Positions 10,483 through 63,306 of a stretch of DNA of 64,000 bases are shown here, piece by piece. A model generated the notes under the pieces. It was not told the origin of the DNA and did not search any database. It saw only the letters and a program-made list of their open reading frames with translations. This stretch comes from Opitutus terrae PB90-1 (GTDB lineage Bacteria; Verrucomicrobiota; Verrucomicrobiia; Opitutales; Opitutaceae), in the NCBI RefSeq assembly GCF_000019965.1, contig NC_010571.1:2117001-2181000 (forward strand), read 5' to 3'. Position numbers and translations under genes: made by a program. Position 1 is the stretch's first letter. Each line of letters starts with the position of its first letter.

Positions 10483-10490
10483 GCCGTGCC

Positions 10491-10525
10491 CCGGCTAGTT
10501 TCACGTAATACGTGAAACTAGCCGG
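10491..10525. repeat. Perfect 35-bp palindrome of the TTTCACGT/ACGTGAAA family
   Basis: 16-bp arms (CCGGCTAGTTTCACGT and its complement) around an AAT loop. It lies between two convergent genes (kinase and copper ATPase). With no T-run it is not a standard intrinsic terminator, though it could act bidirectionally. Its core recurs at 13132-13158, 23976-23994, 24246-24264 and, in variant form, 63464-63492. Confidence 0.9.
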
Positions 10526-10579
10526 TGGCCGCTGCGGCCGTAAATTGTCTCGCGGGCGAGCTGCGGGAGACGCGCGGCG

Positions 10580-12721: not shown

Positions 12722-12894
12722 ACTCAGGCAGACGGAGACGTCCGCGACATCTTACAGAGATTCGGTGGGGTGTCGCGACGCACGTGCGATTTCTGGCGGT
12801 CAGAAGACCGCCGCAACCGATCCATTCGACGATCGGATATTGCCCCATGGCGCCGCCACCCCGGTCGGGCTAGGTTGAGGAACATTTCCTCACC

Positions 12895-13098
12895 ATGAAG
12901 GCCCTCCGCATCAAAGTGAATTCCGTCCGACCCGACCTGGCACCGCATCTCGAGAAATCCGTGGAGTCGGTGCCGCACGTGCAAGCGGTGCGCGTGGACA
13001 TTGACGACTCCTGCATCGTGGTGGAACACGACGGCGCGGATCCGGAGCAAGTCACCGCCGCGCTGCGCGCGGAAGGGTTCGAGCCGCGGAACGGCTGA
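12895..13098 (+). CDS. Small HMA-like protein lacking the CxxC metal motif
   Basis: 67 residues: MKALRIKVNSVRPDLAPHLE, then KSVESVPHVQAVRVDIDD and VEHDGADPEQVTAALRAEGF. Length and strand order (beta-alpha-beta-beta-alpha-beta, ending with EGFEP) match heavy-metal-associated domains such as CopZ. The loop that should hold MxCxxC reads NSVRPDLAP, with no cysteine. The only cysteine is in DDSCIVV. It is divergent from the copper ATPase with 173 bases between them. It could be a docking or regulatory relic of a copper chaperone, or it may bind another ligand. Confidence 0.75.
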   Translation: MKALRIKVNSVRPDLAPHLEKSVESVPHVQAVRVDIDDSCIVVEHDGADPEQVTAALRAEGFEPRNG

Positions 13099-13131
13099 CG
13101 CGCCGGCGAGCACCCGAGCGCGTGACTGCCA

Positions 13132-13158
13132 CGAGTTTCACGTGACACGTGAAACTCG
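13132..13158. repeat. 27-bp palindrome supplying the stop codon of the sigma factor gene
   Basis: CGAGTTTCACGT, GAC loop, ACGTGAAACTCG. The minus-strand sigma factor reads into it (residues VSRVT) and terminates at a TGA inside it (13138-13140), so the element forms the last codons of the protein. Confidence 0.88.
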
Positions 13159-13722
13159 CCTGGAGGTTGCGACACGCGACGACGGCGGACAATCGCAGTC
13201 GAGGCACGCGCCGCTCGCGCAGGCGCCGCAGAAGGCCTCGAGGCGTTCGCGCAGTTCACCCCGGGCGCGGTGGAGTGTGACGCTGGCCGCGTTGGTCGAG
13301 AGGCCAAGCGCGGCCGCGACCGCGGCCACGGGCTGGTCTTCGAACTCGACGCGCCGCAGCAGTTCCGCGTGCCGTGGTTTAAGCGTGGCGAGCAGCGGCT
13401 CGAAGCACCGGCAAAGCGCCTTTGCGGCCGCGGCGTCGGAGGTCAGGGCGAGCGCGGGATCTGTCGACCAACTCTGCTCCCGCGCCGCAGCCGCATTGCG
13501 CTGTCGCAGGTGATCGACGACCGCATGCCGCAGGATGCCATAGAACCAGGCGGACACCCGCGCCTCGTCGCGTAGTTCGCCGCCGTGTTGCCAGGCCTTC
13601 AGCAGGCTCGACTGCAACACATCCTCCGCATCGGACGCGTTGCCGAGCCGCGAGACGAGGAACGCTTTGAAGACGCCACGCTGCGCCAGCAGTGCGTCGG
13701 TGATCGCGCTCGAGGTGGTCAT
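13138..13722 (-). CDS. ECF-type sigma factor with a Cys-rich C-terminal tail
   Basis: 194 residues from MTTSSAITDALLAQRGVF. Region 2 is DAEDVLQSSLLKAWQHGG with ARVSAWFYGILRHAVVDHLRQ. Region 4 is LKPRHAELLRRVEFEDQPVAAVAAALGLSTNAASVTLHRARGELRERLE. After region 4 comes FCGACASGACLDCDCPP, a Cys cluster seen in a subgroup of sigma-70 proteins and suggestive of metal or redox sensing. It lies next to copper-handling genes, which fits a metal-responsive sigma factor (inference). The last codons and the stop come from a palindromic repeat, so the original C-terminus was probably different. No anti-sigma gene is adjacent. Confidence 0.9.
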   Translation of the reverse strand: MTTSSAITDALLAQRGVFKAFLVSRLGNASDAEDVLQSSLLKAWQHGGELRDEARVSAWFYGILRHAVVDHLRQRNAAAAREQSWSTDPALALTSDAAAAKALCRCFEPLLATLKPRHAELLRRVEFEDQPVAAVAAALGLSTNAASVTLHRARGELRERLEAFCGACASGACLDCDCPPSSRVATSRRVSRVT

Positions 13723-47574: not shown

Positions 47575-49902
47575 ATGAAATTCACTGATGGCCAATGGCT
47601 GCTCCGTCCGGGGGTAACCGCCCACTACGCCGCCGAGGCGCACACCATCGCGGTCGAGCCTGACCGGCTCGTGATCAGCGCGCCGGTGCGTCCGATTCAG
47701 CATCGCGGCGACACGCTGCAGGGGCCGCTGCTCACGGTCACGGTCAGCTCGCCACTGCCGGATGTCGCGCGAGTGCGGATCGAACATTTCACGGGTGCGG
47801 CCGAACGCGGGCCCAACCTTCCACTGGTGACGAATGACTCGGCCCCGGTAGCCATCCAAGATTCCGCGGAGGCGGTCACTTTGCAATCCGGCGCGCTGAC
47901 GGTGCGCGTGAAGAAGCCGGGCTGGGAACTCGCGTTCGAGGCTGATGGCCGCGTGCTGACGCGCAACGGCTGGCGCGCGACGGGCTATGTGCAGCTGGAG
48001 CGGGATCGGACCCACGTGCACGAGCAGCTCTCACTCGGCGTCGGCGAATGTGTCTACGGGCTCGGTGAGCGGTTCACGGCCTTCGTGAAAAACGGACAGG
48101 TGGTGGAGTGCACGAACAAGGACGGCGGCACCGCGAGCGAGCAGGCCTACAAGAATGTGCCGTTCTATCTCACGAACCGCGGTTACGGCGTGCTGGTCAA
48201 CGAGACCGGGCCGGTGTCGTTCGAGGTCGCCTCGGAGAAAGTGGCGCGCGTGCAGTTCTCCATTCCCGGCGAGAGCCTGGAGTATTTCGTCATCTACGGA
48301 CCGACGCCCAAGGACATCCTGCGCAAGCTCACCGCGCTGACCGGCCGGCCGGCGCTGCCGCCACCGTGGTCATTTGGCCTGTGGCTCTCGACCTCGTTCA
48401 CCACAAATTACGACGAGGCGACGGTGACGAGCTTCATCGACGGCATGAAGCAGCGGGACCTGCCGCTGCATGTTTTCCATTTCGACTGTTTCTGGATGCG
48501 CGAGTTCGACTGGTGCAATTTCGAGTGGGATCCGCGCGTGTTTCCCGATCCGCGAGGAATGCTGCAGCGGTTGCACGCCCGCGGGCTGAAGCTGTGCGTG
48601 TGGATCAATTCGTATATCGGCCAGCGTTCGCGGCTGTTCGCGGAGGGGCGCGAGAAAGGCTACTTCATCAAGCGCACCGACGGCAGCGTGTGGCAGACAG
48701 ACCTGTGGCAGCCCGGCATGGCGATCGTGGATTTCACGAACCCGGCGGCGCGCGCGTGGTTCGCGGGACACATCGAGCGGCTGCTGGACATGGGCGTCGA
48801 TGCGATCAAGACGGACTTCGGCGAACGCATTCCGACCGAAGGCGTGGTTTACCACGACGGCTCCGATCCGGTGAAGATGCACAACTTCTATCCGGTGATT
48901 TACAACGAGACGGTGTTTCGCGCGATCGAGGCGAAACGCGGTCGCGGCGAAGCGGTGCTGTTCGCGCGCGCGGCGTATGCCTCGGGCCAGCGGTTCCCTG
49001 TGCACTGGGGCGGCGATTGCTGGTCGACGATGGAGTCGATGGCGGAATCGCTTCGCGGCGGACTGTCGCTCGGGATGTGCGGCTTCGGATTCTGGAGTCA
49101 CGACATCGGCGGATTCGAGGGCACAGCCCCGGCCTACATCTACAAGCGCTGGGCGGCGTTCGGGCTGCTGTCATCACACAGCCGGTTGCACGGCAGTTCG
49201 AGCTATCGGGTGCCATGGGCTTACGATGACGAGGCGTGCGACGTCGTGCGCTTCTTCACGAAGCTGAAGTGCCGGCTGATGCCTTGTCTCTGGTCGGCCG
49301 CGCTGACGGCGCATCGCGAAGGTGTGCCGATGATGCGCGCGATGCTGCTCGAGTTCCCGGGCGATCCGGCGTGCGACACGCTGGATCGGCAATACATGCT
49401 CGGCGACGCGCTGCTCGTGGCGCCGGTCTTCACGGAAGACGGCACGGTGGACTACTACTTGCCGGAAGGGAAGTGGACGCATCTGCTGACGGGCGAAACA
49501 CAAGAGGGCGGGGGATGGCGTCGCGGACGGCATGGCTTCCTGAGTCTGCCGCTGTTCGTGCGGCCGGGCACCGTGCTCGCGCTGGGCGCGACCGACGATC
49601 GGCCGGACTACGATTATGCGGCGGACACCACCTTCCGCGTCTATGAGTTGGCGGAGGGAGCGAAGTCGACCGCGGTGATCTGCGGCGCCGACGGAACCGA
49701 GCAGGCGCGCGTGCAGGTGCAGCGCTCGGGTCAGCGGATTCGCGCGAAGCTCACCGGCGAGGTCCGTGGCGCGTGGAATCTGCAGCTCGCCGGGGTGAAG
49801 ACCGTGCGCCCGGGCAAGGGTGCGGCGGCTTCCGCCGATCCGTTGGGTGTGATCATCCGCGTCGAACCCGGCATCAACGAAGTGGAGTGCGAGTGCGGCT
49901 GA
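47575..49902 (+). CDS. yicI: Alpha-xylosidase, GH31 (YicI-like)
   Basis: 775 residues from MKFTDGQWLLRPGVTAHYAAEA, the length of E. coli YicI. The nucleophile Asp414 is in DAIKTDFGERIPTEGVVYHDGSDP and the acid/base Asp481 in HWGGDCWSTMESMAE, positions nearly equal to YicI Asp416/Asp482. The YicI-like FHFDCFWMREFDWCNFEWDPRVFPDP and RAAYASGQRFPVHWGGD are clear. No signal peptide, so cytoplasmic. It removes alpha-xylosyl units such as those of isoprimeverose from xyloglucan. The presence of xylose isomerase downstream fits. It follows the GH2 gene with a 26-base gap. Confidence 0.95.
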   Translation: MKFTDGQWLLRPGVTAHYAAEAHTIAVEPDRLVISAPVRPIQHRGDTLQGPLLTVTVSSPLPDVARVRIEHFTGAAERGPNLPLVTNDSAPVAIQDSAEAVTLQSGALTVRVKKPGWELAFEADGRVLTRNGWRATGYVQLERDRTHVHEQLSLGVGECVYGLGERFTAFVKNGQVVECTNKDGGTASEQAYKNVPFYLTNRGYGVLVNETGPVSFEVASEKVARVQFSIPGESLEYFVIYGPTPKDILRKLTALTGRPALPPPWSFGLWLSTSFTTNYDEATVTSFIDGMKQRDLPLHVFHFDCFWMREFDWCNFEWDPRVFPDPRGMLQRLHARGLKLCVWINSYIGQRSRLFAEGREKGYFIKRTDGSVWQTDLWQPGMAIVDFTNPAARAWFAGHIERLLDMGVDAIKTDFGERIPTEGVVYHDGSDPVKMHNFYPVIYNETVFRAIEAKRGRGEAVLFARAAYASGQRFPVHWGGDCWSTMESMAESLRGGLSLGMCGFGFWSHDIGGFEGTAPAYIYKRWAAFGLLSSHSRLHGSSSYRVPWAYDDEACDVVRFFTKLKCRLMPCLWSAALTAHREGVPMMRAMLLEFPGDPACDTLDRQYMLGDALLVAPVFTEDGTVDYYLPEGKWTHLLTGETQEGGGWRRGRHGFLSLPLFVRPGTVLALGATDDRPDYDYAADTTFRVYELAEGAKSTAVICGADGTEQARVQVQRSGQRIRAKLTGEVRGAWNLQLAGVKTVRPGKGAAASADPLGVIIRVEPGINEVECECG

Positions 49903-50060
49903 GCCGCTGGTGAATGACCGACCCTGTGCGGTGGATTGGCCGGCGCTCGCCGGCCGACCGCCGCGGGGGCGGCGGTTCGGCATTGTCATCCGGAAAGCGT
50001 TCTTGCCAGAGTGACGGCGTCGCGCCCGAACCTGGGCCGGACCACGCTTGCTCCATCCTC

Positions 50061-50618
50061 ATGAATCCTGCCAACACTTTCCCGCCACCGTTCGTTCGTT
50101 CGTTTGGGCTCTGCGCCGCATTGCTGCTCGGGTTGGTGCTGAGCGGCTGCGCGACGTCGGAATACAAATACACGACGAAGATCTCATCGGGGGAGCGGCT
50201 GAGTTTCCGGCTGGTGAACGGACGCGTGGACGACGCGGTTGCCGACGGGTTCGAAGCTCGCGCGCCGGTCATTCTGCCCGGAGAAAAGGAGAAGAAGCTT
50301 CAGTTCGCGTTTGGTGTGGTGGCCAAGAACAAGCCTCCCCGCCGCGTGCAGGTGGAGGATGTTTCCGAAGAACAGCCGATGCTGCTGGTGGATGACACCG
50401 ATCCGCAGCTGAAGGGCCAGCTATGGACGGGGCAATCCGCTTGGTTCGACCTGGAAGACCCGCAGGCGCACTGGATCAGTTATCTGGGCGAAACGTTTAG
50501 GGTTTACCGGATCACCATCACGACGGCGGATGGGGCGACGGTGGTGCTGCACGAAGGCAGCGTGACGCCTGCGTTCATGAAGGCGATGATGCGGAAGTTT
50601 TTTGGGAAGGAATATTAA
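50061..50618 (+). CDS. Small lipoprotein of unknown function
   Basis: 185 residues from MNPANTFPPPFVRSFGLCAALLLG. The lipobox LVLSGC gives lipid attachment at Cys31. The mature part (ATSEYKYTTKISSGERLSFRLVNGRVDD) is beta-rich. A segment reads FGVVAKNKPPRRVQVEDVSEEQPMLLVDD. I do not recognise a family. It is located between the alpha-xylosidase and TonB receptor genes with 158 bases before it, so it may be separately expressed. It could be a general envelope protein unrelated to sugar use. Confidence 0.75.
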   Translation: MNPANTFPPPFVRSFGLCAALLLGLVLSGCATSEYKYTTKISSGERLSFRLVNGRVDDAVADGFEARAPVILPGEKEKKLQFAFGVVAKNKPPRRVQVEDVSEEQPMLLVDDTDPQLKGQLWTGQSAWFDLEDPQAHWISYLGETFRVYRITITTADGATVVLHEGSVTPAFMKAMMRKFFGKEY

Positions 50619-50987
50619 CGTCGCCTGCTGAAGAGGTCGCGACCTGCGTATCGAGGGGAGGGCTGCCTGATCGAGGTGCCGTGCGGGCAAGCCGGCGGAC
50701 GGATCAGCGTGGCCTCGCTGCCGGTGCTCAGTGAGCGTGCGAAAAAGATTGCACCCGGCGATTTAACGGTAAAGTTAATTTAACGCTAAACCACAGCGTT
50801 TCGTTACCCGTTACCCACCCATGACGCTCCGTGCCCGCGGTTTCCAGCCGTGCTTTCGCGGCTGTACTCCTTCCGCTTCGAGGCTGTCTGCCTGGCAGCG
50901 GGATGGCGACCTGTGGTTTGCCCCTCCTGCAGTGACTCCGCCGGCTGCCGGCGGGATTTCTGCGACTACAAACAGCAACACCCCATC
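50619..50987 (+). promoter_or_regulatory. Leader region of the first TonB receptor gene
   Basis: 369 bases without a convincing gene. From about 50760 it matches the leader of the second receptor: paired TTTAACGSTAAA sites, then CGTTACCCG...CCCATGACGCTCC, and CTACAAACA just before the start. A 56-codon ORF from 50821 overlaps the receptor start as ATGA, but the matching ORF in the other leader is only 29 codons, so it is probably not a gene. Confidence 0.6.
50762..50790 (+). promoter_or_regulatory. Pair of operator-like sites upstream of TonB receptor 1
   Basis: TTTAACGGTAAA (50762-50773) and TTTAACGCTAAA (50779-50790), 17 bp from start to start. Each is a near-palindrome with central CG, as in LacI-family operators. 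The same pair with the same spacing is at 54967-54995. A LacI gene lies 8.5 kb downstream. A conserved promoter is the alternative reading. Confidence 0.6.
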
Positions 50988-51071
50988 ATGAACAAACCTA
51001 GGTTCACTCGATACGTGCTCGCGTCCGCTCTGACGCTGGCACTTTCGTCGGCCCGCATCGTGGCGCAGACA
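50988..51071 (+). repeat. 84-base signal-peptide cassette identical to that at 55207-55290
   Basis: The first 28 codons match base for base, including all third positions, between the two receptor genes, and then similarity falls sharply. The match extends weakly upstream (ACAAACA, CAACACCCC). Confidence 0.95.
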
Positions 51072-54000
51072 GCCACGCCGTCGGATCCGACCGTCAATTC
51101 CGAGGACGATCAGCCCATCGTGCTGTCTCCGTTCGTTGTCGACGCTTCGGAAGACCGGGGCAGCTATCAGGCCACCTCCACGCTGGCTGGCTCGCGCGTG
51201 AAGACCGACCTGAAGGACGTCGCCTCGTCCATCAGCGTCATCACGGCCGACTTCCTCAAGGACACCGGCGCGCGGAACTCGCAGGACCTGCTCGTTTACA
51301 CGACGAACACGGAAGTCGGCGGCGTCTACGGCAACTACGGCGGCGTGGGCAACACGTTCATCGATGGTGCGAACGAGAACGCCAACCTCGTGCGGCCGAG
51401 CAACAACAACCGCGTGCGCGGCCTGGACTCGGCGGACAATACCCGCGACTTTTTCCAGACCGACATTCCGTGGGACTCCTACAACGTCGGCCGCGTCGAC
51501 CTGCAGCGCGGGCCGAATTCGATCCTGTTCGGTATCGGCAGCCCGGCGGGCATCATCAACAGCAGCCTCAACCTGGCCACGTTCGGCAAGAACGGCGGCA
51601 GCGTGGAGAATCGCATCAGCAGCTTCGGCTCCGTCCGCAATTCGATCGACTACAACTATGTCGTGTTGAAGGACGAACTGGCGCTCCGACTCGCGTTGCT
51701 CGACGATCACACAAAGTATCGTCAGCGGCCCGCGTTCAATCGCGATCAGCGCGCCTATCTCTCGGGTCGGTGGGCGCCGAAGTTCCTCAACACCGGCAGC
51801 TCCCGCACGAGCGTGCGCTTCAACTACGAGAATGGCGACATCAAGGCGAACCGCCCGCGCGCGCTGCCGCCGTGGGACAGCATCACGCCGTATTTCGATT
51901 CCACGGCGATCAACAAGAAGGTCTATGATCCCTACTACGCCTGGGAGTCGCAGGCGATCGGTTATCCCTCCTCCGAGCCGCAAAACGCGATGGAGCCGAA
52001 GAATTACTGGGTGGTGCAGTATATGGTGCCCGGCACCCAAGCCACGGCGAATCCCATGTTCTTCTACGACATGGCCAACTCGACCACCCATGCTTATGTG
52101 ACGCAGGCGGGGCCAACCACCTACTACGGGTTGAGCAGCAATGGCGACCGCGACGCCGGGATCGACGGCTTCCCCTACGGCAGCAACATCGGCATCGCGA
52201 GCTTCAACGAGGCGGCCTACAACAGCTGGCGTACGCTCGGTCAGGCCGCGACGCCGTATCCAGCTGCGGACAAGGGCTTCTACAAGCGGAAGTCCCTCGT
52301 CGATGAATCGATTTTCAACTTCTACGACAACCTGATCGACGGCCCGAACAAGGGCGAGTGGCAGAAGTGGGACGCGTTCAACATCGCGGTCGAGCAGACG
52401 TTCCTGGACAACCGGCTCGGCTTCGAACTCGTCTACGACTATCAGGACTACCGCGACGGTTCCTATCGGACCATCGGCAACCCGACCATCACGGTGGACA
52501 TTCGGGCGAACCTGATGAACTACCCGTGGACGTATCCGGAACTCGGCGTCGTCAAGAATCCGAACGTGAATCGCGCGATGGTTGGCGGCAGCGGCCGCGG
52601 CGGTGGCAATGCGTTCTTCAGCACGCGCGACGACATCCGGTTCACCGGCTTCGGCGAATTCCGCTTCAAGGATGTGCTCGGCAATTCGCTGCTGAGCACG
52701 ATTCTCGGCACGCATCGGCTGACCGGGCTCTATTCCCGCGACACGGTCCAGCAGGAAAACCGCACCTGGACGCTCTGGAAGGTGGAGCAGAAATGGTCCG
52801 ACGTGCTCGGCAACGGCACGGTCAACGGCGGCTCCGGCATCGGCGGATTGGTCAACGGTGACGTGGTGCCGGACGTGGTTACCTACATCAGCGGCGACCT
52901 GAGCCCGCGCTCCAGCGCGGCCGGCTTGAATCTGCCGCGGCTTGCGACGGTGCAGGAACCGACGGCGGGCGGCTATGTGATCCCGTATTTCGACTCGCAC
53001 TGGAACGCGACCAACGTGAACCCGGCGGATCCGTGGACCAATCCGGCGCGGCAGTTCTGGCCGGGCGGCAACCAGGTCGGTTTCCAATCCGACAATCCCG
53101 CCAACTACGTCGGCTGGGTGCAGGACAAGTTCAACCTCCTCAACTGGCGGAGCGGAGACGACATCAATCAGCTCTACACGGACGTCAGCAAGGTCCGGAA
53201 GGTGACGGATTCCCAAGCCTTCACCTGGCAGGGCTTCCTGTTCGAAGACACGGTGGTGGGCACGTTCGGCTGGCGCCGCGACGAGCAGGACCTCGAGTCG
53301 GGTGACTCGTCGGCCAGCGATGTCGGCGGGTCCGGTTATGCGCACACGGATCCGGCGTTCGAAAAAGGGCCTGATCGCAGTGCGGGCGAAAGCAAGAGCT
53401 GGGGTGTGGTGGTTCACACGCCGAAGCGCTTCCGGACGCTGCTGCCGGGCAACTCTTACCTGAGCTTCAGCTACAGCGACGGCACGAACATGCGCGTGGA
53501 GAATCGCTATGGGTTCAGCGGCAACGCGCTCCCGAATGCCCGCGGCAAGACCAAGGATTTCGGTGTGGCGCTCAGCACGCTCAACGAGCGGCTCGTCCTG
53601 AAAGCCACCTGGTACAAGACGACGGTCAAGGACGCCAACCTGTCCACCGTCACGACCGAGACCACGACGCTCGGCAACAACACGTACTACCTCCGCAATC
53701 TCGAAGCGTGGGGCACGACCTCCGCGCTGATCGATCTGGCGGGCCGTCAAGGCGGCGCCCCGGGCTGGGAGTGGTATTGGAACTGGGCCCTGATCGACAA
53801 CGGCTGGGACGGCATCTACAACGATCCGAACGGCGACGCGTTCCGCGACTCACCGTCGACGGCGAAGCAGACCGCGGCGATCAACTCGTGGTTGTCGCAG
53901 ATGCCCGACCAATCGTGGTTCGATGCCTATGGTTTCCCGATCGACGTCGCGGCCGCCAAGGCCGGCAACTGGCAGAACGCGATCCGCGGTTGGACCCCGA

Positions 54001-54719
54001 GCGCCGGGGTCGGCGGCGTCCAGCCCTCGGGCGGCGGCCGCATCAACGGCGTGTATCCGACCGGCACCGCTGACAACGAATCGAAGGGCGTAGAGTTCGA
54101 GCTGATCGGCCAGGTCACCAAGGGCCTGAACATCTCGATCAACGCTTCCAAGCAGAACGCGTCGCAGACGGCGCTGGGCCAGGATCTCGTGACGTTCATT
54201 GAAGCGACCCACGCGAAGTATGAGTCACCGGCCGGCGATCTTCGCCTCTGGTGGGGTGGTGACGCGACCCTCCGCGAATACTTCAACAACAACATCTGGT
54301 CGGCCTACCTCTTCCAATTGGAGACGAATGGCCGGATGGTCGCCGAAATGTCCCCGTGGCGCTTCAACAGCACGGCGAACTACTCGTTCGACAAGGACAG
54401 CCGTTTCCGCGGCGTGAACGTTGGCCTCAGCTATCGCTGGCAGGACAAGCGCATCCTCGGTTACCGGCTGAATGCCGACAAGTCGAACCTCGACATCAAC
54501 TCCCCGATCTGGAGTGAGACCGAGGACTACATCGACATGTGGGTCGGCTATGAGCGGAAGCTGACGCCGAAGATCGGTTGGCGCGTGCAGCTCAACCTGC
54601 GCAACGTCGGCGACGATGCCCGCCTGCTGCCGCTCAGTGTGCAGCCGGACGGTTCTCCGGCGATGTTCAAGATCCAGGAAGGCATGACCTGGTCGCTCAC
54701 GAACACGTTCACGTTCTAA
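50988..54719 (+). CDS. TonB-dependent receptor (outer membrane), tandem copy 1
   Basis: 1243 residues from MNKPRFTRYVLASALTLALS, a signal peptide ending near ARIVAQT. Plug domain: LSPFVVDASEDRGSYQATSTLAGSRVKTDLKDVASSISVITADFLKDTGARNSQDLLVYT, NRVRGLDSADNTRDFF and VDLQRGPNSILFGIGSPAGIIN. A long beta barrel follows, and the C-terminus TNTFTF ends in the aromatic residue typical of outer membrane proteins. It would import an oligosaccharide using TonB energy. No SusD partner lies next to it. Its first 84 bases are identical to those of the next gene, and it has the same terminator, but the barrel has diverged. Confidence 0.94.
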   Translation: MNKPRFTRYVLASALTLALSSARIVAQTATPSDPTVNSEDDQPIVLSPFVVDASEDRGSYQATSTLAGSRVKTDLKDVASSISVITADFLKDTGARNSQDLLVYTTNTEVGGVYGNYGGVGNTFIDGANENANLVRPSNNNRVRGLDSADNTRDFFQTDIPWDSYNVGRVDLQRGPNSILFGIGSPAGIINSSLNLATFGKNGGSVENRISSFGSVRNSIDYNYVVLKDELALRLALLDDHTKYRQRPAFNRDQRAYLSGRWAPKFLNTGSSRTSVRFNYENGDIKANRPRALPPWDSITPYFDSTAINKKVYDPYYAWESQAIGYPSSEPQNAMEPKNYWVVQYMVPGTQATANPMFFYDMANSTTHAYVTQAGPTTYYGLSSNGDRDAGIDGFPYGSNIGIASFNEAAYNSWRTLGQAATPYPAADKGFYKRKSLVDESIFNFYDNLIDGPNKGEWQKWDAFNIAVEQTFLDNRLGFELVYDYQDYRDGSYRTIGNPTITVDIRANLMNYPWTYPELGVVKNPNVNRAMVGGSGRGGGNAFFSTRDDIRFTGFGEFRFKDVLGNSLLSTILGTHRLTGLYSRDTVQQENRTWTLWKVEQKWSDVLGNGTVNGGSGIGGLVNGDVVPDVVTYISGDLSPRSSAAGLNLPRLATVQEPTAGGYVIPYFDSHWNATNVNPADPWTNPARQFWPGGNQVGFQSDNPANYVGWVQDKFNLLNWRSGDDINQLYTDVSKVRKVTDSQAFTWQGFLFEDTVVGTFGWRRDEQDLESGDSSASDVGGSGYAHTDPAFEKGPDRSAGESKSWGVVVHTPKRFRTLLPGNSYLSFSYSDGTNMRVENRYGFSGNALPNARGKTKDFGVALSTLNERLVLKATWYKTTVKDANLSTVTTETTTLGNNTYYLRNLEAWGTTSALIDLAGRQGGAPGWEWYWNWALIDNGWDGIYNDPNGDAFRDSPSTAKQTAAINSWLSQMPDQSWFDAYGFPIDVAAAKAGNWQNAIRGWTPSAGVGGVQPSGGGRINGVYPTGTADNESKGVEFELIGQVTKGLNISINASKQNASQTALGQDLVTFIEATHAKYESPAGDLRLWWGGDATLREYFNNNIWSAYLFQLETNGRMVAEMSPWRFNSTANYSFDKDSRFRGVNVGLSYRWQDKRILGYRLNADKSNLDINSPIWSETEDYIDMWVGYERKLTPKIGWRVQLNLRNVGDDARLLPLSVQPDGSPAMFKIQEGMTWSLTNTFTF

Positions 54720-54729
54720 CGGACGTTTT

Positions 54730-54808
54730 GATTCCAGCCGGCGGTTGCAAGTCGCCGCCGGCTGAGGGTGGGGACTTGCGTGGCGCCACGGCCTAGCCTT
54801 GGCGCCAC
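54730..54808 (+). repeat. Conserved 3' cassette of receptor 1, matching 59085-59164
   Basis: 79 bases that differ from the second copy by one substitution and a one-base indel in the alignable part. It starts 11 bases after the stop codon and contains two hairpins: AGCCGGCGG/CCGCCGGCT and the terminator stem. Confidence 0.92.
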
Positions 54809-54815
54809 TTTTTTT
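54780..54815 (+). terminator. Intrinsic terminator after TonB receptor 1
   Basis: Stem GTGGCGCC / GGCGCCAC with loop ACGGCCTAGCCTT, then seven T. Preceded by another GC-rich hairpin at 54736-54763. Confidence 0.9.
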
Positions 54816-54966
54816 GCTCCGACGGAGAGAACCGTGTGGGGCGCAGGCATCGCAGAGATGCCCCGGGGGACAGTGGCGGTGCCGGGCGGCCGGCGCGGGT
54901 GGGGGCCACACCTTGGAACCCGGCCAGTAGACAGACAAATCGCGAGAATAAGATTGCTTTCCACGA

Positions 54967-54995
54967 CTTAACGGTAAAAGGAATTTAACGGTAAA
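54967..54995 (+). promoter_or_regulatory. Pair of operator-like sites upstream of TonB receptor 2
   Basis: CTTAACGGTAAA (54967-54978) and TTTAACGGTAAA (54984-54995), again 17 bp apart. They sit in the same position relative to the conserved CCCATGACGCTCC word as the pair before receptor 1. Confidence 0.6.
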
Positions 54996-55206
54996 CGCTT
55001 AACCCCATTCTGCGTTTTCGTTCCCCCGTTACCCCACCCATGACGCTCCTGGCTGCGCGGCTTTCGGCTGCACGCGTACCGCGGCCTGCCCGTGCCCCGA
55101 GTTATCGTGGTTGGTGGCGACGAGCGTAAACGCACGACGGGACCACGCACTGATACACCCCACCGGCCTTACCTCCGGCGGACTCGCTACAAACATCAAC
55201 ACCCCC

Positions 55207-55290
55207 ATGAACAAACCTAGGTTCACTCGATACGTGCTCGCGTCCGCTCTGACGCTGGCACTTTCGTCGGCCCGCATCGTGGCGCAGACA
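55207..55290 (+). repeat. 84-base signal-peptide cassette identical to that at 50988-51071
   Basis: Second copy of the identical leader. The exact match stops at CAGACA, and the next codons differ (ACCAATACC versus GCCACGCCG). Confidence 0.95.
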
Positions 55291-58200
55291 ACCAATACCG
55301 CCGCATCCGACGCAACTGTGCCAGCGAACCAGGACGAAGAAGTCGTCGTCCTTTCCCCCTTCGTCGTCGAATCCACCGAAGACGAGGGCAAATACCGTGC
55401 CTCCGCCACGCTCGCCGGCTCACGCCTCCGTACCGACCTGAGAGACATCGCCTCGCCGCTCAGCGTGGTGACCTCGCAGTTTCTGCAGGACACGGCCGCG
55501 ACCAGCAACCAGGACCTGCTGACCTACACGACCAGCACTGAAGTCGGCGGGTTGTTTGGCAACTGGGGCGGCTTCGGCAACGCCCAGGGCGTTAGCGACC
55601 GCAACACGTTGCTGTCGCCCAATCAGAACACCCGCGTCCGCGGTTTGGATCAGGCCGACAACACCCGCAACTTCATGCTCACGGATATTCCGTGGGACAG
55701 CTACAACACCGAGCGCGTCGAGATCCAGCGCGGGCCAAACTCGATCCTCTTCGGCGTCGGCAGTCCGGCTGGTATCATCAACGCCAACACCATTCAGGCG
55801 CGCTTCGACGGCAACTCCGGCAAGTTCGAGAACCAGATCGGCAAGTACGCGTCGGTTCGCTGGGTGGCGGACTACAATGTGGAGGTGGTCGACGATCTCC
55901 TGGCCATCCGGGTGGCGGGGCTGTTCAACGACCAAAAATTCCGGCAGGAGCCCGCGTTCAACGACGACCGGCGTGGGTACATCACGGCGACGTTCCAGCC
56001 GCAGGTGTTGCCGCAAAGTTGGGCCGGCAAGCTGACGGTGCGTGCGAACTACGAGAAGGCCAAGATCACCGCCAATCGGCCGCGCATCCTTCCCCCGGAA
56101 GACGGGATCTCCCTGTGGTTCGAAGACTATGCCGGTGACGGCGTGAACAACAAAATCGGGTTCAGCAAGCAGGTCTACGACATGTTCCTCTGGAGTCAGA
56201 CCGGTGGTGGCGATGCCAGTCGTGGTACCTTGGCGACGGCCGCGGCGACCGTGCTGAATCCCCTGCCGTATCAGCCGGCGGTTTCCGTGCTCGATGGTGG
56301 CGCGCTGAACAACGGTGGCATTGGCTTCTGGTTCCGGAACGGTGACTCGCGGCCCTTCTTCGTCTCACGGCAGGCGCCGCGCGAGAATCCGGGCGCGTTG
56401 AACGCCTCCGGTGGCGTGGACAATGCGATCGATATTCCGTATGGCTCGCCGATGCGGGTGGGCGGATTGAACGCTTATGCCTTGTCGATCGACAAGATCG
56501 ACGAAGTCGAACATCAGGCCTCGCGTTATCCGCTGGCGACCCGCGGCTACTACAAGGACCAATCGCTGACCGATCCCACCATCTTCAACTTCTACGATCA
56601 CTTGATCGATGGTGACAACAAGCGGGAACATCAGGAATGGGACGCGACCAATATTTCGGTGGCGCAGACCTTCTTGGACAACCGGCTGGGCCTGGAGTTT
56701 GTCTACGACTCGCAGAGCTACTCCGAGTGGCGTTCAGGAGCGACCTGGAGCCGGCCCTACATCTCCATCGATATCAACAAAAACCTCCAGAACCAGCTCA
56801 CACAGTACACCCGCGTCAATGCGGCTGGGCAGCCGGATCCGGCGGCCGGGCTGATCGACACCAGCTCGTATCAAGCTTATGGCTTCACGCCTTCGGCCGC
56901 ACAGCCCTACGTCAATCCGATGGCGGGCGCGGCGTTCACTGCGGGCAGTTTCTCCAACAACAACCGGACCGACCGGGAGCGGGAAAATTACCGCCTGACG
57001 ACCTTTGCCGAATTTCGGGCGGAGGATTTCTTCAATCGGAATTCGCTGCTGACGCGCATCCTCGGCCGACACATTGTCACCGGCTTGCTCTCGCGCGAGG
57101 AGCGTCGCGAAGAGCAGACGCAATGGGCGCCGAGCGCGACGCCGTATGACTGGGCGTTGGGGCTGTCGGTGGCGGGCGCGGACACGAACCTCACCGGCGC
57201 CACCCGCGGCATCACGCCGGTCATCTATCTCAGTGAGCCGCTCTTCGATCGCACGACGGCCCACGGTCTCAACCTGGGTGCGATCCAGACCTACTACAAC
57301 CCCTCCGGCACCTATCAGGTGGATTACTTCAAAACCGAATGGCTGCCTTCGCGCAATCCGGCCGATGCCAGCTACGTCGATCCGGGTGCGCAGTGGATCA
57401 ACCTTCTCGGCGGAGTCGGCGTTCAAGCGGACAATCCGTTCAATTATCGCGGCCGCACCAACGCCCCGGTTGACATCCTCAATGCGGATACCGGCGACTA
57501 TGCCGAACTTGTCACCAACTTCGGCGTGGCCGAGCAGATCGTCGACTCGGCTGGTTTGGTCTGGCAGGGCCATCTCCTCGGCGGAAACATTGTGCCGACG
57601 GTGGGTTGGCGTAAGGACAAGCTTCGCACCTACACCGCCACGGGGGCCAAGGATGCCACTGGCATCTCTGCGACCGAGGTCGGCAAGACCGAGCAGGTCC
57701 TCGACAACGAGGGCCGGACCACCTCCTGGGGCGTCGTCGCGCACGTGCCCAAGTCCTGGATGCAGAATGTTCCGGTTCTGTCCGGGCTCAGCGCCTACTA
57801 TAATTACGGCGAGAACAACCGGGTGGAGGCTCGCTACAACTACGATGGCGAGCCCTTGGACAACCCGTCCGCCGAGAGCAAGGACTACGGGATCGTGCTG
57901 AGCGCCTTCGAGGACAAACTCAGCATCAAGGTGGGCAAGTACGAGACCAAGGTGAAGAACGCCAACCTGCCGGGCGGCAGCTCCATTCTCGGATCCAACC
58001 AATACTACCTCTACCAGCTCGAAGCCTGGGGCACGGCGAATACGCTGTTGTACGCCTTCGGCCGTGCCGGCCTCGACCCGAACCAGTCGTGGCACTGGAA
58101 CTGGGCCGGGATCGATGCGACCGGCGACGGTGGCAATCCTGCCTACGCCCCGACGACGGATCTCTTCCTCAACCATCCCAGCTCTCAGAGACAGTTGGCG

Positions 58201-59076
58201 GCGATGGATGCCTGGATGGACGGCCTCGATGCGCAGTTCTTCACAAACTATGCGATCAACGCCAACGTCCAGGCATTGAAGACCGCCTACACCACATGGC
58301 GGTCGAGCGGCAACATTCAGCCGCTCGTCGATGCCGCCAAAGCCAGCGGTTTCAACGTCGGCACCTACACCACTGGATTCTCGTCGCAGAACAACGGCCA
58401 GATCAACGGTATCAGCCCCAACGGCACGATCGATAACACCTCGAAGGGTTACGAGATCGAGGTCAATTGGACGCCGACCCCAAGCTGGAACATTCAGGTG
58501 AATGCCGCCAAAACCGATGCTTTCCGCGAGAGTCTGGGCAAGCCGATGCTCGATTACATCGACAAGCAATGGTCTCGTCTGCAGGGCCCGGCGGGCGACA
58601 TCCGACTCTGGTGGGGTGGCGACAACCCGGTCCGTCGCTACTACTCGGACAACATCGTTTCCGCGGTGGAATTCCAGAAGGAGTCCATCGGCTTCCAAGT
58701 CCCCGAAATGCGCCCGTGGCGTTTTGGTGCGATTACCAACTACAGCTTCAAGGAAGGCACCTTGAAGGGCTTCAACGTTGGCGGCGCTTATCGTTGGGAG
58801 GACAAGCAGATCCTCGGCTATGGGCTGAAGGCCGACCTCACCGGGCTCGATGTCCGCAAGCCGCTCTTCGGCGAGACCGAAGACCACGTCGATCTCTGGG
58901 TCGGCTACCAGCGCAAGCTCAACCGGGATATCACGTGGCGCATCCAGCTCAACCTGCGTAATGTCGGCGAATCCGAGGGACTGACGCCCATCTCGGTCAA
59001 TCCCGACGGCGTGGTCGCGGCGCAGCGTATCACCGAAGGCATGTCGTGGCTGGTCACGAACACGTTCTCGTTCTGA
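55207..59076 (+). CDS. TonB-dependent receptor (outer membrane), tandem copy 2
   Basis: 1289 residues from the ATG at 55207. The signal peptide is identical to copy 1 (MNKPRFTRYVLASALTLALS). Plug: LSPFVVESTEDEGKYRASATLAGSRLRTDLRDIASPLSVVTSQFLQDTAATSNQDLLTYTTSTEVGG, NTRVRGLDQADNTRNFMLTDIPWDSYNTERVEIQRGPNSILFGVGSPAGIIN. The barrel shares blocks such as FNFYDHLIDG, TFLDNRLGLEFVYDSQ and NISVAQ with copy 1, but there is much divergence and different loops, suggesting altered ligand range. The C-terminus TNTFSF is typical of outer membrane beta-barrels. It is followed by the same terminator and then the LacI gene. Confidence 0.94.
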   Translation: MNKPRFTRYVLASALTLALSSARIVAQTTNTAASDATVPANQDEEVVVLSPFVVESTEDEGKYRASATLAGSRLRTDLRDIASPLSVVTSQFLQDTAATSNQDLLTYTTSTEVGGLFGNWGGFGNAQGVSDRNTLLSPNQNTRVRGLDQADNTRNFMLTDIPWDSYNTERVEIQRGPNSILFGVGSPAGIINANTIQARFDGNSGKFENQIGKYASVRWVADYNVEVVDDLLAIRVAGLFNDQKFRQEPAFNDDRRGYITATFQPQVLPQSWAGKLTVRANYEKAKITANRPRILPPEDGISLWFEDYAGDGVNNKIGFSKQVYDMFLWSQTGGGDASRGTLATAAATVLNPLPYQPAVSVLDGGALNNGGIGFWFRNGDSRPFFVSRQAPRENPGALNASGGVDNAIDIPYGSPMRVGGLNAYALSIDKIDEVEHQASRYPLATRGYYKDQSLTDPTIFNFYDHLIDGDNKREHQEWDATNISVAQTFLDNRLGLEFVYDSQSYSEWRSGATWSRPYISIDINKNLQNQLTQYTRVNAAGQPDPAAGLIDTSSYQAYGFTPSAAQPYVNPMAGAAFTAGSFSNNNRTDRERENYRLTTFAEFRAEDFFNRNSLLTRILGRHIVTGLLSREERREEQTQWAPSATPYDWALGLSVAGADTNLTGATRGITPVIYLSEPLFDRTTAHGLNLGAIQTYYNPSGTYQVDYFKTEWLPSRNPADASYVDPGAQWINLLGGVGVQADNPFNYRGRTNAPVDILNADTGDYAELVTNFGVAEQIVDSAGLVWQGHLLGGNIVPTVGWRKDKLRTYTATGAKDATGISATEVGKTEQVLDNEGRTTSWGVVAHVPKSWMQNVPVLSGLSAYYNYGENNRVEARYNYDGEPLDNPSAESKDYGIVLSAFEDKLSIKVGKYETKVKNANLPGGSSILGSNQYYLYQLEAWGTANTLLYAFGRAGLDPNQSWHWNWAGIDATGDGGNPAYAPTTDLFLNHPSSQRQLAAMDAWMDGLDAQFFTNYAINANVQALKTAYTTWRSSGNIQPLVDAAKASGFNVGTYTTGFSSQNNGQINGISPNGTIDNTSKGYEIEVNWTPTPSWNIQVNAAKTDAFRESLGKPMLDYIDKQWSRLQGPAGDIRLWWGGDNPVRRYYSDNIVSAVEFQKESIGFQVPEMRPWRFGAITNYSFKEGTLKGFNVGGAYRWEDKQILGYGLKADLTGLDVRKPLFGETEDHVDLWVGYQRKLNRDITWRIQLNLRNVGESEGLTPISVNPDGVVAAQRITEGMSWLVTNTFSF

Positions 59077-59084
59077 GAAACATC

Positions 59085-59164
59085 GATTCCAGCCGGCGGT
59101 AGCAAGTCGCCGCCGGCTGTAGGGTGGGGACTTGCGTGGCGCCACGGCCTAGCCTTGGCGCCAC
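59085..59164 (+). repeat. Conserved 3' cassette of receptor 2, matching 54730-54808
   Basis: 80 bases with the same two hairpins as in copy 1. It starts 9 bases after the receptor 2 stop codon. Confidence 0.92.
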
Positions 59165-59171
59165 TGTTTTT
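59136..59171 (+). terminator. Intrinsic terminator after TonB receptor 2
   Basis: Stem GTGGCGCC / GGCGCCAC followed by TGTTTTTATT; same loop as the terminator at 54780. Confidence 0.88.
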
Positions 59172-59306
59172 ATTGGAAGCCACTGCGGCGGAGAGGGGCG
59201 GTGGCGCCCGCTTCGACGGCGGTTCGGCTCTGCGGCTGAACTCGGGCTTGTAGTGCAAATGCTCAGCTCGTAAATACGTATGCGTCTGTGCAGATTCCCC
59301 GCTGAC

Positions 59307-60419
59307 ATGACCAACTCCAATCGATCCAAACCGGTGCGTGCGGCCACCCTCGCCGATGTGGGCCGCGCGGCGGGTGTCTCAGCGATGGCGGCGTCGGCGG
59401 TGCTCAACGGCGCCCGCACGTCCTCGCGGATCGCGGCCGAAACGCGGGCGCGGATTCTGGAGGCGGCGGCCCGCCTGCGTTACCGCCCCAACGCGACGGC
59501 CCGTGCGCTGGTGAATCGCCGGATGAACACCATCGGCGTCACGGCCGTCATCGGCGGGGGCGAGCTCAACGCGTACGCGATGGAGATCTTCACCGGCATC
59601 CTCAGCGCGGCGGCGCACGCGAATCAGAACACCACGATGTTCACGCTGCACGACTGGGGACGTGACACGGCTCGCTTGCAGGGATGGTGCGATGGTCGCA
59701 TCGACGGCATGATTCTGATTGCACCGACGCTCGACCTCGAGGCGGCCAAGCTGCTGCCGACGCACACCCCTTTCGTGGCGTTGCATGCCAACACCGTGCT
59801 GCCGAACGTCATCAACATCGAGAGCGACGAGGAGCGCGGCGCCTACGAGATGGTGCGGCACCTGATCAGTCTCGGGCACCGCCGGATCATGCACGTGAGC
59901 GGTAACCGCGGTTTTATCGGCGCCGAGCGCCGGATCAACGGCTACAAGCGCGCGCTGGCCAACGCCGAGATCCCCTTCTCCGAATCTCTGTTGGTGCCGG
60001 CTACCTACGTCGGCGACACCGCCCGGGCGGCCATGTCGGCTTGGCTGAAGCGCAATGCCGGCCAGCCGCTACCCGATGCGGTCTTCTGCGCGAACGACGG
60101 GATCGCGATCGGCTGTCTCGAGGCCTTTGCCGAACTCGGCCTGCGCGTGCCGGATGATATTTCCGTGGCGGGGTTTGACGATACTCTCGCGGCGCGCACG
60201 ACCGTGCCGCAGCTGACGACGGTGCGGCAGCCGTTGCAGGCAATGGGCACGCGGGCCGCTGAAGTACTGCTCAGCCTGATCGCACGACACGCGGACGGCG
60301 GCGTGCTCGACTTTCCCAATCCGATCGTTTTCCCGGTCGAGATGGTGATGCGTAGCTCCGTGGCGGCGGCGCGGGGAAGCGCCCGGATCGTGCCGGGAAA
60401 TCCTCCAGTCCGCAGTTAG
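59307..60419 (+). CDS. LacI-family transcriptional regulator
   Basis: 370 residues from MTNSNRSKPVRAATLADVGR at 59307. The N-terminal helix-turn-helix is ATLADVGRAAGVSAMAASAVLNGAR...TRARILEAAARLRYRPNATARAL. The recognition-helix segment has AMAASAVLNG where TVSRVLNG is usual, so operator preference may be shifted. The periplasmic-binding-like effector domain includes IGVTAVIGGGELNAYAMEIFTGIL, VINIESDEERGAYEMVRHLISLGHRRIMHVSG, PDAVFCANDGIAIGCLEAF and ISVAGFDDTLAARTTVPQLTTV. It sits between the receptor pair and xylA, so a xylose- or xyloside-type effector is likely. The candidate operators are the paired TTTAACGSTAAA sites before the receptors. Confidence 0.94.
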   Translation: MTNSNRSKPVRAATLADVGRAAGVSAMAASAVLNGARTSSRIAAETRARILEAAARLRYRPNATARALVNRRMNTIGVTAVIGGGELNAYAMEIFTGILSAAAHANQNTTMFTLHDWGRDTARLQGWCDGRIDGMILIAPTLDLEAAKLLPTHTPFVALHANTVLPNVINIESDEERGAYEMVRHLISLGHRRIMHVSGNRGFIGAERRINGYKRALANAEIPFSESLLVPATYVGDTARAAMSAWLKRNAGQPLPDAVFCANDGIAIGCLEAFAELGLRVPDDISVAGFDDTLAARTTVPQLTTVRQPLQAMGTRAAEVLLSLIARHADGGVLDFPNPIVFPVEMVMRSSVAAARGSARIVPGNPPVRS

Positions 60420-60499: not shown

Positions 60500-61834
60500 A
60501 TGAAGAAAGCTCGCCTGCACTTCCCCCGCATCCGGCCCATCGCCTACGAGGGCCCCACATCGTCGAGCGCGCTCGCGTTTCGACATTACAACCCCGAAGA
60601 GGTGATCGACGGAAAGACGATGGCGCAGCACATGCGCTTCTCCATCGCCTACTGGCACACGTTCGCCAGCGACGGCCGCGACCAGTTTGGCGCGGGCACG
60701 CTGCACCAAGGCCGCCCGTGGGAACGGAGCGGCGATGCGATGTCGGTCGCGCTCGCCCGGCTCGATGCCGGTTTTGAATTCTTCCAGAAAATCCAGGCGC
60801 CGTTCTGGTGCTTCCACGATCGCGACATCGCCCCGGAGGGCCGCTCGCTCGCGGAGTCGAACCGGCTGCTCGACCGTGTCGTCGCGCACGCGAAGGAGCT
60901 TCAGAAGGAGACGGGCATCAAGCTGCTGTGGGGCACGGCGAACCTGTTCAGTAATCCGCGCTACATGTCGGGGGCGTCAACCAACCCGGACGCTCACGTT
61001 TTCGCCTACGCCGCGGCGCAGGTGAAGAAGGCGCTCGAGGTCACGAAGCAGCTCGGCGGCGAGAACTACGTTTTCTGGGGCGGCCGCGAAGGCTACGAGA
61101 CGCTGCTCAACACGAATCTCAAGCGCGAGCAGGATCATCTCGCGGCGTTCCTCCACATGGCGGTCGATTACGCGAAGGAGATCGGCTTCAAGGGCCAGTT
61201 CCTGATCGAGCCGAAGCCGAAGGAACCGACGAAGCACCAATATGACTTCGACGTGGCCAGCGGGATCGCGTTCCTGCGCACCTACGGGCTGGAAAAGTAT
61301 TTCAAGTTCAACATCGAGACCAATCACGCCACGCTTGCCGGCCACACGTTCAGCCACGAGATCGAGGTGGCCGCGTCGCAGGGCATGCTCGGCTCCATCG
61401 ATGCGAACACCGGCGACCTGCTACTCGGCTGGGACACCGACCAGTTCAACACCGACGTCAAGGAACTCACGCTCGCGATGGTCTCGATCCTCAAGGCGGG
61501 CGGCCTGGGCTCGGGCGGTTTCAACTTCGATGCGAAGGTCCGTCGCCAGTCCATCGATCTCGACGATCTGTTCCACGCGCATATCGGCGGAATGGATGCC
61601 TACGCGCTGGCGTTCAAGATCGCGCGTCGGATCCTGGCCGATGGCAAGTTCGAGCAGTTCGTGGCGGACCGCTATGCCAGCTTCGATTCCGACTACGGCC
61701 GCGACATCGAGAAGGGCCGCATCGGATTCAAGGAGCTGAACAAACTCGTGCTGAACAAGCTCGGCGAGCCGAAGCCTCGCTCCGGCAAGCAGGAGTATCT
61801 CGAGAACCTCCTCAACAGCTACCTGCACGGCTGA
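60500..61834 (+). CDS. xylA: Xylose isomerase
   Basis: 444 residues, class II length (about 440). Signatures: [32 protein letters not shown] with the catalytic His, [22 protein letters not shown] with a metal Glu, [36 protein letters not shown] and [16 protein letters not shown]. It interconverts xylose and xylulose in the cytoplasm. It stands alone behind the LacI gene, 80 bases downstream, and is followed by its own terminator. No xylulokinase (xylB) is adjacent. Confidence 0.97.
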
Positions 61835-63220: not shown

Positions 63221-63306
63221 TGGTGCCCGGGGCGGGGCTCGAACCCGCACGCTCTTACGAGCAAGGGATTTTAAGTCCCTAGTGTCTGCCATTCCACCAC
63301 CCGGGC
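63221..63306 (-). tRNA. tRNA-Leu (UAA)
   Basis: 86 bases including an encoded CCA end. The acceptor stem is GCCCGGG / CCCGGGC. The D arm is GTGGAATGGCAGAC. The anticodon stem-loop AGGGACTTAAAATCCCT carries TAA. A long variable arm (GCTCGTAAGAGC) is typical of class II tRNA-Leu. The T arm reads GCGGGTTCGAGCCCCGC. Confidence 0.96.

What the first reader, a model, noticed from the sequence alone, without database searches (positions are those of the whole stretch)
50988..59171. Tandem TonB receptors with identical 5' and near-identical 3' cassettes but diverged bodies
The first 84 coding bases are identical, including third codon positions, and the 79/80-base terminator regions nearly so, while the barrels differ greatly. 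Simple tandem duplication cannot leave such a pattern unless ends are homogenised by gene conversion or are supplied as a modular export-and-termination cassette.
Basis: seen in the sequence. Interest (0 to 1): 0.7.

Follow-up and report, generated by a model that had tools for sequence, protein, structure and literature searches.

The report
Neighbouring receptor genes sharing start sequences
Two adjacent nutrient-receptor genes in an Opitutus bacterium have the same start sequence but very different bodies, because neighbouring receptor genes in this group appear to copy their export-signal ends onto each other while the rest of each gene evolves on its own.

Summary
Two TonB-dependent receptors, A (50988-54719) and B (55207-59076), have 84 of 84 identical opening bases and an 84/87 identical double-hairpin 3' block. 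Their bodies are about 41-44% identical in protein. The step is sharp: the longest identical codon run is 28, and none outside it exceeds 4.

The best evidence is comparative. The only other held genome of the genus carries both receptors, in swapped order between the same flanking genes. Its two receptors also share a leader and signal peptide, but a different one. So the signal peptide matches the neighbour rather than the orthologue.

In a survey of 126 related receptor genes, 10 of 16 neighbouring same-strand pairs with bodies under 60% identical share this leader block, against 13 of 7,735 other pairs. In one Pelagicoccus-group genome the transfer can be polarised.

Best explanation: short-tract gene conversion homogenises translation start plus signal peptide between tandem receptors. 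The mechanism is inferred. The terminator half is not general (3 of 15 loci), and no mobile cassette was found. This is a new variant of segmental concerted evolution, known from Helicobacter outer-membrane proteins.

The parts
50988..54719 (+). TonB-dependent receptor A, 1243 aa, Plug domain at residues 75-189
55207..59076 (+). TonB-dependent receptor B, 1289 aa, Plug domain at residues 78-190
50966..51071 (+). shared leader plus signal-peptide block, copy 1 (coding part 50988-51071 identical to copy 2)
55187..55290 (+). shared leader plus signal-peptide block, copy 2
54730..54815 (+). shared 3' block after A: two hairpins and a T run (intrinsic-terminator-like by eye; the consensus scan did not list it), 84/87 to copy 2
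59085..59171 (+). shared 3' block after B
50736..50791 (+). promoter-region block before A with two TTTAACGnTAAA sites (50762-50773, 50779-50790); operator role inferred from the LacI-family gene nearby
54941..54996 (+). matching promoter-region block before B (sites 54967-54978, 54984-54995), 77% to the A copy
59280..60419 (+). LacI-family regulator gene next to the pair (context)

Best explanation
The pair is under segmental concerted evolution. A and B are old paralogues whose TonB-box, plug and barrel regions now differ too much to recombine readily. A short island, from about 20 bases before the start codon to the signal-peptide cleavage region, is copied from one tandem gene to the other by homologous recombination (gene conversion). 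In this strain the terminator block, and less recently the promoter block, were probably copied too. The copying does not change what the receptor binds, because the signal peptide is removed on export, so it is tolerated; copying into the body would mix specificities. Shown here: the sharp block, its within-genome sharing and between-genome difference, its dependence on neighbourhood, and one polarised transfer in a relative. Inferred: that the enzyme route is ordinary RecA-type recombination, that it recurs, and that lack of homology on both sides (with selection against mixed bodies) sets the borders.
For: Sharp step, 28 identical codons and no other run over 4. In the congener G173 (JANPZY010000001.1, Opitutus sp. 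MAG) both orthologues lie between the same GH31 and LacI-family genes. Their bodies align at 74-76% DNA to A and B, but alignment starts only about 130-140 bases into the genes. Its two genes share their own leader (70 of 84 coding bases; 91 of 108 with the leader), while A against its orthologue is 36% in the first 28 residues and 71.5% after. Survey: leader score at least 60 in 10 of 16 neighbouring same-strand pairs with bodies below 60%, in 13 of 7,510 other pairs and in 0 of 225 non-neighbouring pairs of this genome; neighbouring bodies go down to 35%. Leaders otherwise fade: among cross-locus pairs 8 of 39 with bodies 60-70% identical, 2 of 20 at 70-80% and 6 of 9 at 80% or more reach that score, and the one own-genome pair at 81% does not. 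Polarised case: the A-type gene of G192 is 76%, 76% and 65% identical in body to three relatives that share one signal peptide, yet it carries its neighbour's (84 of 91 bases; neighbour body 36%), and the tract ends inside the signal peptide. B's orthologue in G042 (75%) shares its leader with a different neighbour.
Against: No strain-level series was available, so no conversion event was seen directly, and for A and B the direction is unknown. 6 of 18 neighbouring pairs (6 of 16 loci) do not share the leader, nor does another adjacent pair of this genome at 4841/4844 kb (leader score 24; not in the survey). 13 pairs of different loci also share leaders despite bodies below 60%; at least two groups of them are syntenic loci, which fits body replacement as well. 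The swapped gene order in G173 leaves room for independent assembly of the pair. In one pair (L261) the peptide is identical while silent sites differ, so selection on the peptide also plays a part. Survey pairs are not independent, and for some (L112, L182, L216, L241) body identity rests on 228-288 aligned residues.
Confidence: 0.7

Rival explanations
1. Body replacement: the leader and signal peptide belong to the locus, and a new receptor body is recombined in behind a duplicated leader, so both genes carry the same start from that moment.
For: L204 and L253 are syntenic loci with alike leaders (score 171 and 86) but bodies 35-38% identical, and L204's body relatives (66%, 63%) have other leaders. 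L254, L234 and L235 share a leader that was found once in each of their genomes, with bodies of 47-69%. Two dispersed paralogues of this genome (L052, L190) are 78% identical in DNA from about the TonB box to the stop codon and unrelated in leader and terminator.
Against: In Opitutus both bodies are orthologous in the two genomes and in the same locus, so the leaders changed while the bodies stayed. In G192 the body is the old one and the leader is new.
Confidence: 0.2
2. Selection alone: both receptors need the same translation start and signal peptide for matched expression and export, so the two starts stay alike without recombination.
For: L261 has an identical 25-residue signal peptide with silent differences; the two promoters also look co-regulated.
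Against: 27 of 27 synonymous choices agree and the untranslated leader is shared too; the sequence is free to differ between genomes; sharing follows neighbourhood, not body relatedness.
Confidence: 0.07
3. The block is an RNA element (structured leader or small-RNA target) shared for joint control.
For: The block starts before the start codon and covers silent positions.
Against: No Rfam match at gathering thresholds in 50000-60000; folding z-scores of the four leaders are -0.9, -1.7, -1.5 and +0.4; silent sites drift in other pairs. Small-RNA targeting itself was not tested.
Confidence: 0.03

Closest known systems
Helicobacter pylori babA/babB and homA/homB segmental concerted evolution (review PMC3960876, passages seen; it cites Pride and Blaser 2002, not seen)
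   Same: Duplicated outer-membrane protein genes in which one segment is alike within a strain while other segments are alike between strains, explained there by intragenomic recombination and gene conversion.
   Different: There the 3' segment is concerted and the 5' segment is not, and chimeric bab genes arise by gene conversion. Here the concerted part is the leader plus signal peptide, in TonB receptors of Opitutales, with bodies as low as 35% identical.
Mycoplasma agalactiae Vpma surface-protein switching (PMC2268961, search listing; conserved 5' ends and Xer-type recombinase recalled)
   Same: Surface-protein genes with alike starts and unlike bodies (recalled).
   Different: That is phase variation by a dedicated site-specific recombinase (recalled). 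The neighbours of A and B that I scanned (GH31, 234-aa ORF, LacI, isomerase-like, tRNA-editing domain) include no recombinase; the rest of the window was not scanned for one.
SusC/TonB receptor shuffling by DNA inversion in Bacteroides (recalled; the 15 listed of 4,087 papers hold nothing on it)
   Same: Recombination acting on TonB-type receptors (recalled).
   Different: Here the repeats are direct and short; a link to an invertase was not tested.

Membership tests
TonB-dependent receptor | Plug domain over the curated cut-off | tested here: met
   PF07715 41.5 and 41.3 bits against a cut-off of 23.9
TonB-dependent receptor | 22-strand outer-membrane barrel | not tested
   no fold was run; no Pfam barrel model matched at E <= 0.001
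Segmental concerted evolution by gene conversion | Segment more alike within a genome than between orthologues, flanks the reverse | tested here: met
   A, B and their G173 orthologues
Segmental concerted evolution by gene conversion | Identity extends to silent and untranslated positions | tested here: met
   27 of 27 synonymous codons; leader before ATG shared
Segmental concerted evolution by gene conversion | Polarised replacement of one copy's segment by the other's | tested here: inconclusive
   met for the G192 gene against three outgroups; not testable for A and B themselves
Segmental concerted evolution by gene conversion | Dependence on RecA-type homologous recombination | not testable with these tools
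   needs a genetic experiment
Mobile cassette | Copies of the ends elsewhere in the genome | tested here: not met
   no further copy of the 5' block or of the full 3' block at E <= 10
Helicobacter Hop outer-membrane proteins | Hop-family homology | not tested
   not compared; the likeness is in the manner of evolution only

The most novel reading that the evidence does not exclude
The shared leader blocks are standing recombination handles: an exchange within them leaves a complete, exportable receptor gene, so Opitutales can swap, reorder or replace receptor bodies behind a locus-bound leader. The reversed A-B order between two Opitutus genomes, the syntenic loci with one leader and different bodies, and the dispersed bodies with different leaders would then be products of one process that drives receptor-repertoire turnover.
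Probability: 0.25. Interest if true: 0.65.

Novelty: new variant of a known kind. Interest (0 to 1): 0.5.

Why it matters
It shows that in receptor-rich Opitutales the export end of a receptor gene often reports its neighbour and not its ancestry. Signal peptides or 5' ends should therefore not be used to judge orthology there. It also offers a natural system in which recombination seems to keep a roughly 100-base island alike between genes that are otherwise only 35-44% identical in protein, which makes the minimum homology and the selective limits of gene conversion testable. If the handle reading is right, it would help explain how carbohydrate-receptor repertoires turn over.

Tried and rejected
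Recent tandem duplication with relaxed bodies: rejected. The bodies are 56% identical in DNA with no gradient, and both have orthologues in the congener. Genome-wide leader cassette: rejected. RNA element: no Rfam match at gathering threshold and no consistent fold. Position-bound promoters explaining the swapped order in G173: undecided, the upstream and downstream regions of the two genomes barely align. A chimeric plug in L204: considered after and rejected by windowed identities (0.82 to L212 against 0.73 to L253 in the first 60 residues). Dispersed spread of the L235-type leader: one copy in each of three genomes, none in the fourth. Homology of the two Opitutus signal peptides: the codon-shuffle test favours it (0 of 500), but shuffling also breaks the normal order of a signal peptide, so I count it as inconclusive. 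Leader and terminator hits outside the own genome in the wider family (252 genomes) were short matches, the best at E 3.8e-5, and were not followed. A plug search of six genomes listed only part of its matches and was not used for counts. The family searches with A and B scored only the two best candidates per genome, so they are no census.

Literature: 8 searches. Searches, on TonB-dependent receptors with gene conversion, hold 1 and 7 papers, all listed; searches list 15 of 39, of 4,087 and of 24. None of the listed titles or abstract openings reports leader or signal-peptide conversion between TonB receptors. This covers only the open library named by the tool; beyond listings I saw passages of one review.

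Survey rows dropped or added: of 139 receptor hits in 116 loci, 131 had a recognisable TonB-box motif; 1 was dropped for a short upstream region and the middle gene of the L188 trio was added by hand because the motif search missed it; 126 remained after dropping identical regions. L193 was left out as the same place as L112. Pairs on opposite strands were not counted. Neighbouring means same locus and strand, starts 3.0-13.7 kb apart, other genes between them allowed. Pairs without a protein alignment of 200 residues were dropped from the body-identity table.

Full report
WHAT IS THERE. The window is part of a 5,957,605-base single-contig genome. That size matches Opitutus terrae PB90-1 from memory. 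The genus is supported because the only same-genus genome held, G173, has a contig of the same length (2,689,941) as the named record JANPZY010000001.1, Opitutus sp. MAG. Receptors A (50988-54719) and B (55207-59076) follow each other on the + strand. Upstream lie a GH31 glycosidase gene and a 234-aa ORF without a Pfam match; downstream lie a LacI-family regulator (59280-60419) and a gene with a xylose-isomerase-like barrel (60500-61834). Both receptors carry a TonB plug domain. A role in uptake of plant sugars is inference from these neighbours.

CHECKING THE OBSERVATION. The first 84 coding bases of A and B are identical. The rest is 56% identical in DNA and 44% in aligned residues. The longest run of identical codons is 28, against at most 13 in 10,000 permutations of codon columns, and no run outside the first 28 codons exceeds 4. 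Synonymous choice agrees in 27 of 27 codons in the block and in 282 of 498 outside (p 5.6e-7). The match extends about 20 bases before ATG. The 3' block is 84 of 87 and folds as two hairpins followed by T residues; the simple terminator scan did not list it, so 'terminator' rests on the fold and the T run. The promoter regions also match more weakly and each carries two TTTAACGnTAAA-like sites; that they bind the neighbouring LacI-family protein is inference. Neither end was found elsewhere in the genome in full, although the genome has 45 plug-domain matches.

THE CONGENER. G173 holds orthologues of both genes between the same neighbours, but in the order B-A. Bodies align at 74-76% DNA identity, starting about 130-140 bases into each gene. 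The two G173 genes share 70 of 84 opening coding bases and 91 of 108 with the leader, yet their common signal peptide is unlike that of the window. A against its orthologue is 36% identical in the first 28 residues and 71.5% afterwards. The G173 3' ends are not alike, so terminator sharing is a separate and less general matter.

THE SURVEY. I collected related loci from the family and 80 named loci. From 116 loci came 126 distinct receptor genes with a recognisable TonB box. The DNA from 330 to 24 bases before the TonB box was compared locally. There were 18 same-strand, same-locus pairs in 16 loci, starts 3.0-13.7 kb apart. The score was 60 or more in 12 of 18 pairs (10 of 16 loci), and 34 or less in L182, L190, L216, L241, L256 and L268. 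With bodies below 60% identical the counts are 10 of 16 neighbouring, 13 of 7,510 other and 0 of 225 non-neighbouring own-genome pairs (Fisher 4e-23 for 10/16 against 13/7,735). Pairs are not independent: the L188 trio gives three, and the window and L112 are orthologous loci, so the p value overstates. Shared leaders occur with bodies of 35-41% in the window, L173, L181, L242 and L261. Among cross-locus pairs, leaders reach the score in 8 of 39 with bodies 60-70% identical, 2 of 20 at 70-80% and 6 of 9 at 80% or more, so leaders normally fade before bodies do. The shared 3' end scores 45 or more in 3 of 15 loci tested (window, L253, L188); L225 and L261 score 38 and 39, just above the background's 99th percentile of 35. 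One more adjacent pair of the own genome, at 4841/4844 kb, was looked at apart and does not share its leader (score 24).

A POLARISED EVENT. In G192 the A-type receptor is 76%, 76% and 65% identical to those of Pelagicoccus mobilis (L208), G188 (L180) and G187 (L183), which belong to the same genus group in the genome table. Those three share one signal peptide. G192 instead has, over 91 bases, the leader and part of the signal peptide of the receptor 7.5 kb upstream (84 of 91), whose body is 36% identical. The tract stops inside the signal peptide. That is what a recombination tract would do, and it argues against a strictly bordered module.

OTHER DIRECTIONS. Some loci of different genomes share a leader with unlike bodies. 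L204 and L253 are syntenic loci, as are L254, L234 and L235. In the own genome two dispersed paralogues match at 78% from about the TonB box to the stop and not in leader or terminator. These fit body exchange behind a locus-bound leader, either in addition to conversion or instead of it in those loci.

EXPLANATION. The simplest account of A and B is short-tract gene conversion between tandem genes, limited by lack of homology on both sides and by selection against mixing bodies. Shown: the block, its concerted pattern, the link with neighbourhood and one polarised transfer elsewhere. Inferred: the RecA route, recurrence in this pair, and the direction in this genome. Selection for a common signal peptide probably helps to keep converted copies alike (L261) but does not explain silent and untranslated identity.

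KNOWN KIND AND NOVELTY. Segmental concerted evolution of outer-membrane protein genes is described for Helicobacter pylori babA/babB and homA/homB, where the 3' segment is concerted (PMC3960876, passages). I found no report for TonB receptors or for leader and signal peptide in the listings seen (three of these lists were capped at 15). I therefore rate this a new variant of a known kind.

Noticed in passing
L112 (G173) 9391-13274, minus strand: The B orthologue of the congener is split into two overlapping reading frames near 12297; it may be a real frameshift or an assembly error of the MAG.
   Followed up: no
window 47575-60262 against L112: Receptor order is A-B in the window and B-A in the congener between the same flanking GH31 and LacI-family genes.
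   Followed up: partly
window 50762-50790 and 54967-54995: Two TTTAACGnTAAA-like sites 17 bases apart before each receptor, with one such site found in G173 before its second receptor; possible operators of the adjacent LacI-family gene.
   Followed up: partly
L052 (G000:C1:2549.6 kb) and L190 (G000:C1 near 718 kb): Dispersed receptor paralogues 81% identical in protein from TonB box to end but with unrelated signal peptides and terminators.
   Followed up: partly
window 63221-63306 and L112 2215-3573: A tRNA-Leu gene lies near the window end; the congener has an ORF weakly like a phage-type integrase (21.7 bits, below the 27.1 cut-off) close to the matching region, which may mark an island insertion site.
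   Followed up: partly
G081, G079, G098: These family genomes give 382, 287 and 241 first-look receptor candidates, a very large receptor repertoire if they are real.
   Followed up: no
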